A DNA stretch of 64,000 nt from Cytophagales bacterium (lineage in GTDB: Bacteria > Bacteroidota > Bacteroidia > Cytophagales > Cyclobacteriaceae): the NCBI GenBank assembly GCA_020402945.1, contig JADBYQ010000094.1:1-64000 (forward strand), given 5' to 3'. Below the pieces are notes generated by a model that did no database searches, was not told the DNA's origin, and was given only the letters and a program-made list of their open reading frames with translations. The stretch's first letter is position 1. The number at the start of each line of letters is the position of its first letter. A program made the translations under genes and the position numbers. This document shows, one piece after another, positions 4,966 to 42,491 of this stretch.

Positions 4966-5261
4966 AGTATACGGTTGAGTATGATGATGAAGTTCAAAAC
5001 GATCTGCAAGAAACAATTGATTGGTATGCCGATCAGAAAGAGGGGCTTGACAGGGAGTTTATCGAGAATGTAAAATCAGCTATCGCTCAGATTACCGAAA
5101 ATCCGTTTGTTTACCGGCCTCGCTTTAATAAGATCAGATTCAAACATTTAGACAGATTTCCATACATCGTTGTTTTCAAAATCATAAAAGATACCTTGCT
5201 GGTTTTTGCTATAATTCATGACAAGAGAAACCCTAAACTCATTAGAAAGAGATTAAAATGA
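4962..5261 (+). CDS. RelE/ParE-family toxin
   Basis: 99 aa ParE-like (YTVEYDDEVQNDLQETIDWYADQKEGL...RFPYIVVFKIIKDTLLVFAIIHDKRNP); overlaps antitoxin by 4 bp. Confidence 0.85.
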   Translation: MKYTVEYDDEVQNDLQETIDWYADQKEGLDREFIENVKSAIAQITENPFVYRPRFNKIRFKHLDRFPYIVVFKIIKDTLLVFAIIHDKRNPKLIRKRLK

Positions 5262-40172: not shown

Positions 40173-41243
40173 ATGGACAAAAAAAGTAAGCAATTCCTCT
40201 ACGAGTATCTCAATAATGCATCACCCACAGGCTTTGAATCTTCGGGCCAACAGATATGGCTTGACTATATCAAGCCATATATAAATGACTATATGATTGA
40301 CGTGTATGGAACGGCCGTGGGTATTGTCAATCCTAAAGCATCTTATAAAGTGGTGATCGAGGCGCATGCCGATGAGATCAGCTGGTTTGTTAATTATATC
40401 ACTGATGATGGCTATATCTATGTCCGTAGAAATGGAGGTTCGGATCATCAAATAGCGCCCAGTATGAGGGTGAACATCCATACAGAAAAAGGAATTGTAA
40501 AAGGCGTGTTCGGCTGGCCAGCCATTCACGTGCGTGATGCAGGTAAAGAAGAAGCGCCAAGTTTGAAGAATATTTTCATCGATTGTGGTGCCGCTAATAA
40601 AAAGGAAGTAGAGTCGATGGGTATTCATGTGGGCACTGTCATCACTTTTGAAGCGGACTTAATGGAGCTCAATAAGAATTATCTGGTTGGCCGCGCTCTG
40701 GACAATCGTATGGGCGGATTTATGATTGCAGAAGTAACAAGGAGGTTGAGTGAAAACAAGAAGAAACTCCCTTTTGGGCTTTATGTGGTCAATGCCGTTC
40801 AGGAAGAAATCGGGTTAAGAGGGGCTGAAATGATTTCGCGCAAAATAAAGCCTGATTTGGCCATTTGTACCGATGTTACCCATGATACCCAGTCGCCCAT
40901 GTATAACAAGAAGGAGAGCGGCAATTTAAAGTGTGGTTTGGGTCCAGTTGTGTGTATCGGCCCAGCCGTGCAGAATAATGTGCTCAAGATGATTACCCAG
41001 ACTGCCGAAAAGAAGAAAATTGCCTTCCAGCGCCAAGCAGTGTCGAGGTCTACAGGCACAGATACGGATTCATTTGCGTATTCTGCTGAAGGAGTTGCCT
41101 CAGCGCTCATTTCGCTTCCGCTCAAATACATGCACACCACAGTAGAGACCGTGCACAAAGATGATGTGGAGAACGTAATCAACCTTATCTATGAGGTACT
41201 ACTACAAATAAAGCCCAATTTTGACTACCGGTATATTCGGTAA
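40173..41243 (+). CDS. M42 family metallopeptidase
   Basis: ASPTGFE, IEAHADEISWFV, GRALDNRMGGFM, VNAVQEEIGLRGAEM, RSTGTDTDSF. Confidence 0.9.
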   Translation: MDKKSKQFLYEYLNNASPTGFESSGQQIWLDYIKPYINDYMIDVYGTAVGIVNPKASYKVVIEAHADEISWFVNYITDDGYIYVRRNGGSDHQIAPSMRVNIHTEKGIVKGVFGWPAIHVRDAGKEEAPSLKNIFIDCGAANKKEVESMGIHVGTVITFEADLMELNKNYLVGRALDNRMGGFMIAEVTRRLSENKKKLPFGLYVVNAVQEEIGLRGAEMISRKIKPDLAICTDVTHDTQSPMYNKKESGNLKCGLGPVVCIGPAVQNNVLKMITQTAEKKKIAFQRQAVSRSTGTDTDSFAYSAEGVASALISLPLKYMHTTVETVHKDDVENVINLIYEVLLQIKPNFDYRYIR

Positions 41244-41426
41244 AAAGACGTTTTTTTACTTTTTTAACCTTTGTGAAAAGGGAAGTCCAGCCTTTTATTG
41301 AGTCGGACAAAAAAGTCTTACACTCTATTGTATTGAAACAACTGAGACCCTCTGGTTTTCTGGTGGAGTCTACTTTTCAATCATTAACCAACAACAAAAA
41401 AACAACACAATGAAAACTGTTTACCC

Positions 41427-41603
41427 CAAATTTTGCAATAGCAAAATTTGCCTTCGGCTGATACAAAATGCATAGCATTTTGGTCAGGTCTAATTACTCC
41501 TACAGTCGTTTCAGACTCGTAGGAGGTTGATCCCGAGAATACTGACGGTACCGTCATTACTCTTCGGCTCTTCTGGCAGATTTTGCAGCGACTGCAAAAT
41601 CTG
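41427..41603. repeat. Array of five distinct palindromes/hairpins
   Basis: 41427-41450 CAAATTTTGC-AATA-GCAAAATTTG; 41458-41487 with core CAAAATGC-ATA-GCATTTTG; 41497-41525 CTCCTAC-AGTC...GACT-C-GTAGGAG; 41543-41556 TGACGGTACCGTCA; 41577-41603 CAGATTTTGCAG-CGA-CTGCAAAATCTG. Confidence 0.8.
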
Positions 41604-41605
41604 GG

Positions 41606-41713
41606 TTGAAAGTGTTAGATGAAAAACTTAAGTTTGAGTTGAATCAGGTTTCTGTAACTGCTTCGACACAAAAAGTGGCTAGTCAATTTAGTAGTATCGC
41701 TATTTTGTTATAA
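41606..41713 (+). pseudogene. Coding-like tail of a small disrupted gene
   Basis: Reads LKVLDEKLKFELNQVSVTASTQKVASQFSSIAILL*; the only nearby start with a good leader (ATGAAAACTG at 41410) is in a different frame, separated by the hairpin array. Confidence 0.35.
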
Positions 41714-41723
41714 GAGATTAGGT

Positions 41724-42491
41724 ATGGTTTTTATCGACCATTTACTTCGCGAAGTCGAAGTGGTTTATCCACCAAAACGCATCATATCTTTAGTTCCGTC
41801 TCAGACGGAACTTTTGTTTTATTTGGGGTTGTCTGGCAGAGTTGTAGGCATCACAAAGTTTTGTGTTCACCCACCGCAATGGCACAATAGTTTACAAAAG
41901 ATTGGAGGCACTAAGAACTTCAAATTCGAAATAATCGATCAGCTTAGGCCCGATTTGATCATTGGAAATAAGGAGGAGAATTACGTGTCTGGAATCTCTG
42001 TTTTACAGACAAAGTACCCGGTTTGGGTAAGCGATGTATCCTCTTATGAGCAGGCACTTCGAATGATTGAAGAAGTTGGCACGTTGACCGACAGGATTGA
42101 CCTGGCCAATTCCCTTCGAAAAGAGATTGAGGCAAGGTTTGAAAGGTTGCCCAAGAAAAAGCCCACACGTGTTCTATACCTTATTTGGCGCCAACCGTGG
42201 ATGGCGGCAGGTAAAGGCACATTTATCGATAGCATGCTTTCCAAGATCGGATTAGTGAACGTAGTGGAAGAAGCAAGATACCCGACCCTTTCTGATGCTC
42301 AACTTCAGCAAATGCAGCCAGAGCTAATTTATCTTTCTTCGGAGCCTTATCCGTTTAAGCAAAAGCATATCCAAGAGTTAAAGGCGGTTGTTCCAAATTC
42401 GGAAGTCACTTTAGTGGACGGAGAGTTGTTTTCCTGGTATGGAAGCAGAATGTTGCTAGCCCCTGATTATTTTGCCTCCCTCACAGAGTAG
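41724..42491 (+). CDS. ABC transporter substrate-binding protein, BtuF/FepB-like helical-backbone metal receptor
   Basis: PKRIISLVPSQTELLFYLGLSGRVVGITKFCVHP; LRPDLIIGNKEEN. Confidence 0.85.
   Translation: MVFIDHLLREVEVVYPPKRIISLVPSQTELLFYLGLSGRVVGITKFCVHPPQWHNSLQKIGGTKNFKFEIIDQLRPDLIIGNKEENYVSGISVLQTKYPVWVSDVSSYEQALRMIEEVGTLTDRIDLANSLRKEIEARFERLPKKKPTRVLYLIWRQPWMAAGKGTFIDSMLSKIGLVNVVEEARYPTLSDAQLQQMQPELIYLSSEPYPFKQKHIQELKAVVPNSEVTLVDGELFSWYGSRMLLAPDYFASLTE

What the first reader, a model, noticed from the sequence alone, without database searches (positions are those of the whole stretch)
41427..41603. Compact array of five unrelated palindromes between the two ends of a broken small ORF
Five palindromes with different sequences are packed in 177 bp: arms of 10, 8(+4), 7+4, 7 (perfect TGACGGTACCGTCA) and 12 bp. 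Between them are two CTTCGGCT segments (41453 and 41562). Upstream is a typical leader and start (AACAACAAAAAAACAACACA ATG AAA ACT GTT, ATG at 41410). Downstream is a coding-like tail (LKVLDEKLKFELNQVSVTASTQKVASQFSSIAILL*, 41606-41713) in a different frame that stops 10 bp before the next gene. The layout fits a structured, non-protein-coding element inserted in, or replacing, the middle of a small gene. It could also be a structured RNA with its own promoter. I know of no standard feature type matching five heterologous hairpins in tandem.
Basis: partly seen in the sequence, partly recalled or inferred. Interest (0 to 1): 0.75.

Follow-up and report, generated by a model that had tools for sequence, protein, structure and literature searches.

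The report
Hairpin-packed mobile element in broken genes
The five hairpins form one copy of a short DNA element that has spread through this and related genomes, probably moved by a transposase encoded elsewhere; its hairpins behave like exchangeable parts, and this copy sits where a deletion has destroyed two neighbouring genes.

Summary
Window 41425-41605 is a full copy of a dispersed non-autonomous mobile element (a MITE); this genome holds 14 copies, counting this one. The ends are inverted repeats (CCCAAATTTTGCA...TGCAAAATCTGGG) shared with degraded IS1380-family insertion sequences in the same genome. Copies are flanked by 5-bp TTNAA-like target duplications (25 of 45 exact; shuffled mean 5.5). 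Sister species G487 has the empty site: two tandem YfiR/HmsC-like genes. The window keeps the first four codons of the first (ATGAAAACTGTT) and the last 35 of the second; about 0.96 kb between them is gone, so this copy has no target duplication.

The unusual part is the family. Two inverted halves are built from constant linkers (TGACGA...TGTCAAGGTTAACCCTGACA...TCGTCA), while the hairpins between them are exchanged whole: backbones 91-96% identical carry unrelated palindromes, and one palindrome recurs in several element types. No Rfam match and no strand-specific pairing bias were found, so an independent structured RNA is not supported. Verdict: a new MITE family with modular hairpins. The mobiliser is inferred; why the hairpins exist is unknown.

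The parts
41425..41605 (.). whole element, CCCAAATTTTG...TGCAAAATCTGGG (181 bp)
   Evidence: aligned with 16 other copies from three genomes; ends defined by inverted repeats and by target-site duplications of other copies
41425..41437 (+). left terminal inverted repeat CCCAAATTTTGCA
   Evidence: closely similar motif at both ends of degraded IS1380-family elements on contigs C100 and C57
41427..41450 (.). left outer hairpin (H1), loop AATA
41450..41458 (.). mini-hairpin GCCTTCGGC (first CTTCGGCT segment); counterpart of the GCCCnnGGGT linker of other family members
   Evidence: sequence comparison
41459..41486 (.). left inner hairpin (H2) inside the TGAC..GTCA linker
41497..41525 (.). optional central hairpin CTCCTACAGTCG..CGTAGGAG; also in G000 C99:27644 and G010 C90
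41533..41566 (.). right inner hairpin (H4) with TGACGGTACCGTCA core; AATACTGACGGTACCGTCAGTATT in other copies; its 3' side includes the second CTTCGGCT
41567..41577 (.). degenerate mini-hairpin GCTCTTCTGGC (consensus GCCCTCCGGGC)
41577..41603 (.). right outer hairpin (H5)
41593..41605 (-). right terminal inverted repeat (TGCAAAATCTGGG on the + strand)
41410..41421 (+). remnant of YfiR-1: start codon and codons 2-4 (MKTV)
   Evidence: aligned to the intact gene in G487 and to its start in G010
41606..41713 (+). remnant of YfiR-2: last 35 codons and stop (LKVLDEKLKFELNQVSVTASTQKVASQFSSIAILL*)
   Evidence: 85% identical to G487 over 153 bp that span this tail and the start of the next gene; the homologous gene in G011 is DUF4154, YfiR/HmsC-like

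Best explanation
The array is one copy of a non-autonomous transposable element (MITE) whose ends match IS1380-family insertion sequences. An IS1380-type DDE transposase acting in trans recognises the terminal repeat (CCCA[A/G]ATTTTGCA) and inserts the element at TTNAA-like sites with a 5-bp duplication (duplication and site shown; transposase inferred). In the window lineage the element's left end lies in the first and its right end in the second of two tandem YfiR-like genes, each at a TTNAA-like site, and the roughly 0.96 kb between them is lost (shown by comparison with G487). The simplest route is two insertions followed by recombination between them, which leaves one hybrid element without matching duplications (inferred). 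Across the family the hairpins are exchanged as whole cassettes between constant linkers, most likely by recombination or template switching between copies (swap shown, mechanism inferred). Whether the hairpins serve the element (for example as terminators that make insertions tolerable) or are only a by-product of how it is copied is not resolved.
For: Copies: 14 places in this genome at E <= 3e-20, window included, and about 10 in G025. Ends: terminal-repeat pattern 69 matches in G000 and 192 in G025 against 4 and 1 for the reversed control. Matching ends on IS1380-like elements in this genome, and an intact 437-aa transposase (PF13701 E 5e-49) next to CCCAGATTATGCATTAG-type ends in sister species G025. 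Duplications: 25 of 45 exact 5-mers, shuffled mean 5.5, maximum 14; where both sides are TTNAA, 18 of 19 share the middle base. Empty site: G487; shared right junction in G025. Hairpin exchange: 25 type-B copies, left/right backbone identity 0.956/0.914 between copies with different inner hairpins and 0.923/0.938 between copies with the same one.
Against: No intact IS1380 transposase gene was found in the window genome itself, only degraded copies and contig-end fragments. The IS copies examined do not show clean 5-bp duplications, so the mobiliser's own target behaviour is unconfirmed. 20 of 45 copies lack an exact duplication. No transposition was observed.
Confidence: 0.85

Rival explanations
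1. A structured non-coding RNA gene with its own promoter.
For: Very stable fold; hairpins preserved across copies with some two-sided changes, 7 of 53 pairs.
Against: No Rfam match; no promoter-like site in 41200-41760; the fold is at least as stable on the opposite strand; G-U 25 against A-C 15 mispairs in local hairpins, not clearly strand-biased; the two-sided changes come mostly from one hairpin replaced as a whole; copies are dispersed with target duplications.
Confidence: 0.05
2. A REP/BIME-like element mobilised by a RAYT (Y1 tyrosine transposase).
For: Intergenic palindromes in inverted pairs; published CGTC-tagged REPs occur in Bacteroidetes and lack a known dedicated transposase (PMC3733652).
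Against: Published CGTC REPs carry the tag at one end of a single 8-9 bp stem with a CCA-like tail; here TGAC..GTCA closes the hairpin on both sides, and the element has terminal inverted repeats with 5-bp duplications, which Y1 transposition does not make (established knowledge). RAYT genes were not searched for.
Confidence: 0.06
3. The window copy is an IS1380-type MITE, but it reached its present state by a transposase-driven deletion next to a single insertion rather than by recombination of two insertions.
For: Such deletions are known for many insertion sequences (established knowledge) and would also place the new end at a TTNAA-like site.
Against: The G025 orthologue is a 43-bp remnant with a type-B left half and a type-A right half, which fits recombination between two elements better.
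Confidence: 0.3
4. The inner hairpins are host-useful bidirectional terminators and the family is kept for that.
For: Some cassettes look terminator-like (AAAGCCCTTTTTGGGCTTT, AAACATTGGTTTCCAATGTTT); in a first set of 17 classifiable copies none lay between divergent genes.
Against: A second, partly overlapping set of 28 gave 12 convergent, 11 tandem and 5 divergent, with no depletion of divergent sites; one terminator-like hit in the window region against 0.7 expected.
Confidence: 0.15

Closest known systems
MITEs derived from insertion sequences (for example the IS982-derived MITE of Cardinium, PMC9769881)
   Same: Short, no coding capacity, terminal inverted repeats shared with an IS, dispersed copies, gene disruption
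   Different: The interior is two inverted halves with constant linkers and exchangeable palindromes, not an internally deleted IS
Tn3-derived TIMEs (PMC4133298)
   Same: Non-autonomous, mosaic, 5-6 bp duplications in AT-rich targets
   Different: Tn3-family ends of 38 bp and a 262-bp simplest form; the mosaicism there is DNA captured between elements, not hairpin cassettes inside one element
GTAG- and CGTC-tagged REPs and their dimers (PMC3733652)
   Same: Intergenic palindromes, inverted dimers, heterodimers with different stems, some structured spacers
   Different: REPs are 20-40 bp units with a one-sided tag; the elements here have IS1380-like ends and 5-bp duplications

Membership tests
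MITE | terminal inverted repeats | tested here: met
   CCCAAATTTTGCA / TGCAAAATCTGGG
MITE | short, without coding capacity | tested here: met
   181 bp; the only overlapping ORF of 40 aa or more (41384-41557, minus strand) runs through the optional central hairpin, which most copies lack
MITE | multiple dispersed copies | tested here: met
MITE | target-site duplication | tested here: met
   family-wide 25 of 45; absent at the window copy, explained by the deletion
MITE | mobilised in trans by a transposase that recognises its ends | not testable with these tools
   only the similarity of the ends to those of IS1380-like elements is shown
IS1380-derived element | ends matching an IS1380-family IS | tested here: met
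   degraded IS on C100 and C57 match NF033539 at E 7e-13 and 1e-19, below the curated cut-off because fragmentary; intact transposase in G025
IS1380-derived element | same target duplication as the IS | tested here: inconclusive
   flanks of the few IS copies seen complete do not match each other
CGTC-tagged REP | CGTC tag 5' of an AT-starting stem, CCA-like tail | tested here: not met
   by inspection against PMC3733652
REP mobilised by RAYT | a RAYT gene flanked by the repeats | not tested
   no search for Y1 transposases was made
Rfam RNA family | covariance-model match at the gathering score | tested here: not met
   0 matches in the window

The most novel reading that the evidence does not exclude
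The family is a system of interchangeable hairpin cassettes: fixed slots framed by TGACGA...TGTCA accept many unrelated palindromes, and cassettes circulate between element types and species by a dedicated or hairpin-templated exchange process, so that secondary structure rather than sequence is what the element passes on.
Probability: 0.3. Interest if true: 0.7.

Novelty: new variant of a known kind. Interest (0 to 1): 0.5.

Why it matters
MITEs are usually seen as shrunken copies of an insertion sequence. Here the ends behave that way, but the interior is a modular set of palindromes that change in sequence while keeping their form, with the same palindrome reused in different slots, element types and species. 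That offers a natural experiment on why bacterial repeats are so often palindromic and how palindromes get replaced. It also matters for annotation: these repeats lie at many contig ends in G025, and in the window they mark the loss of two YfiR-like genes.

Tried and rejected
Rfam: nothing. Structured RNA: rejected on strand symmetry, mispair balance and lack of a promoter-like site. Plasmid and phage collections: no match. My first look for the orthologous site in sister species G025 failed because I read the wrong flank: genome-search loci are not turned to the + strand; the site was found later through the terminal-repeat search. Gene-context bias: a first set suggested avoidance of divergent gaps, a second, partly overlapping set did not, so no claim is made. 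Literature searches for IS1380-linked MITEs or Cytophaga palindromic repeats returned nothing directly on this family; the library holds open-licence papers only, so absence is weak evidence. A solo right hairpin (C49, C32) was considered as an independent unit; an internal deletion between the direct repeats ATTTTGCAG is enough to explain it.

Full report
Observation. The five palindromes, the two CTTCGGCT segments, the leader with its ATG and the downstream coding-like tail are all present as described. The stretch folds far better than dinucleotide-preserving shuffles on both strands (z -6.7 and -8.4).

It is a dispersed element. A search with the consensus finds 14 places in the same genome at E <= 3e-20, the window copy included, plus solo right hairpins at C49:59656 and C32:2236. 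Sister species G025 has about 10 such places and G010 one; further relatives match only the inner hairpin region. Flanks differ from copy to copy. The terminal-repeat pattern with up to two mismatches occurs 69 times in G000 and 192 times in G025, against 4 and 1 for the reversed control; these counts include IS ends. Many matches lie near contig ends, as expected of high-copy repeats.

Insertion signature. In 45 parsed copies from several species the five bases before CCC and after GGG are identical in 25, against a mean of 5.5 and a maximum of 14 in 10,000 shuffles. Where both sides read TTNAA, the middle base agrees in 18 of 19. This is a 5-bp target duplication at TTNAA-like sites.

Likely mobiliser. 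Closely similar ends (AACCCAGATTTTGCAGTAG, AACCCATATTTTGCAGTAG) bound degraded elements on contigs C100 and C57 whose broken ORFs match the IS1380 transposase model and PF13701. G025 has an intact 437-aa transposase of that family (PF13701 E 5e-49) next to ends of the CCCAGATTATGCATTAG type, and a third end type (ATTACGCAWTAG) caps contig-end fragments in G000 that encode what looks like the start of such a transposase (MEFEIGYTDKEITPWGGMVF). That an IS1380 transposase moves the small elements is inferred from the ends.

What it broke. G487, a sister species, has the uninterrupted arrangement: M42 peptidase, a YfiR-like gene starting MKTVKVLF, a second YfiR-like gene ending LKFELNQASVTASTLKVASQLSSMAILL, then the Peripla_BP gene. 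The homologous gene in G011 is DUF4154, YfiR/HmsC-like. The window matches G487 up to ATGAAAACTGTT and again from TTGAAAGTG, so about 0.96 kb and most of both genes are gone, and the two element ends sit at two separate TTNAA-like sites (TTAAA and TTTAA in G487). This explains the missing target duplication. In G025 the same locus keeps only a 43-bp remnant with the same right junction, a type-B left half and a type-A right half. I read this as recombination between two insertions; a transposase-driven adjacent deletion remains possible.

The family architecture. Elements from many relatives share constant linkers while their hairpins differ: CCCA-[outer hairpin]-GCCCnnGGGT-TGACGA-[inner hairpin]-TGTCAAGGTTAACCCTGACA-[inner hairpin]-TCGTCA-[mini-hairpin]-[outer hairpin]-TGGG, that is, two inverted halves. 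The window copy is a type-A member with an extra central hairpin, shared with G000 C99:27644 and G010. An exact linker pattern occurs in 19 of 63 genomes of the genus, but in only 4 of 399 genomes sampled across the phylum, two of them of this genus; reversed-pattern controls were near zero. Named records with recognisable architecture include Cytophagales, Cyclobacteriaceae, Chitinophagaceae, Bacteroidales and Chlorobiota MAGs.

Hairpin exchange. I collected 95 distinct inserts from the inner slot. They include some spurious pattern matches; 45 of the 95 fold so well that at most 1 of 100 of their own shuffles does as well, and short stems such as AAAACTGCGTTTTT are too short for folding energy to register. 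In 25 type-B copies the inner-left slot holds one of three unrelated palindromes, apart from point variants, while the left and right backbones stay 95.6% and 91.4% identical between copies with different palindromes, about as much as between copies with the same one (92.3% and 93.8%). The palindrome ATACTGACGGTACCGTCAGTAT recurs in type A (right slot), type B (left slot) and in several species, and in G000 all four copies lie inside elements. In the type-A alignment 7 of 53 pairs show two-sided changes, mostly from one hairpin replaced as a whole: AAAGCCCTTTTTGGGCTTT for AATACTGACGGTACCGTCAGTATT. So these changes are cassette swaps, not gradual compensation. Local-hairpin mispairs are 25 G-U and 15 A-C, no clear strand preference, which gives no support to selection on one RNA strand.

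Limits. Copy numbers come from searches of draft assemblies. Element parsing was by regular expression and a few rows are imperfect. The mobiliser, the exchange mechanism and any role of the hairpins are inferred. The literature library holds open-licence papers only; the statement that this family is undescribed is therefore provisional.

Noticed in passing
L344 (G010 C267), about 1845-1973: In G010 the same YfiR-1 gene is interrupted soon after its start by an unrelated sequence that also appears, on the other strand, beside a family member in L223; it looks like another repeat.
   Followed up: no
L279 316-483 and 593-778 (G000 C45:4715-4882 and 4992-5177): Two different short elements about 110 bp apart; the first has the same end type (CCCAGATTATGCATTAG) on both sides but no hairpin cassettes, which suggests a second MITE family on the same ends.
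   Followed up: partly
L259-L274 (G000 contig ends): Contig-end fragments of a multi-copy IS1380-like element with ends CCCA(A/G)ATTACGCAWTAG; its body was not found assembled in this genome.
   Followed up: partly
L022 1501-1692 and the following 220 bases (G010 C90): Two different members of the family, one of type A and one of type B, inserted some 30 bp apart.
   Followed up: no
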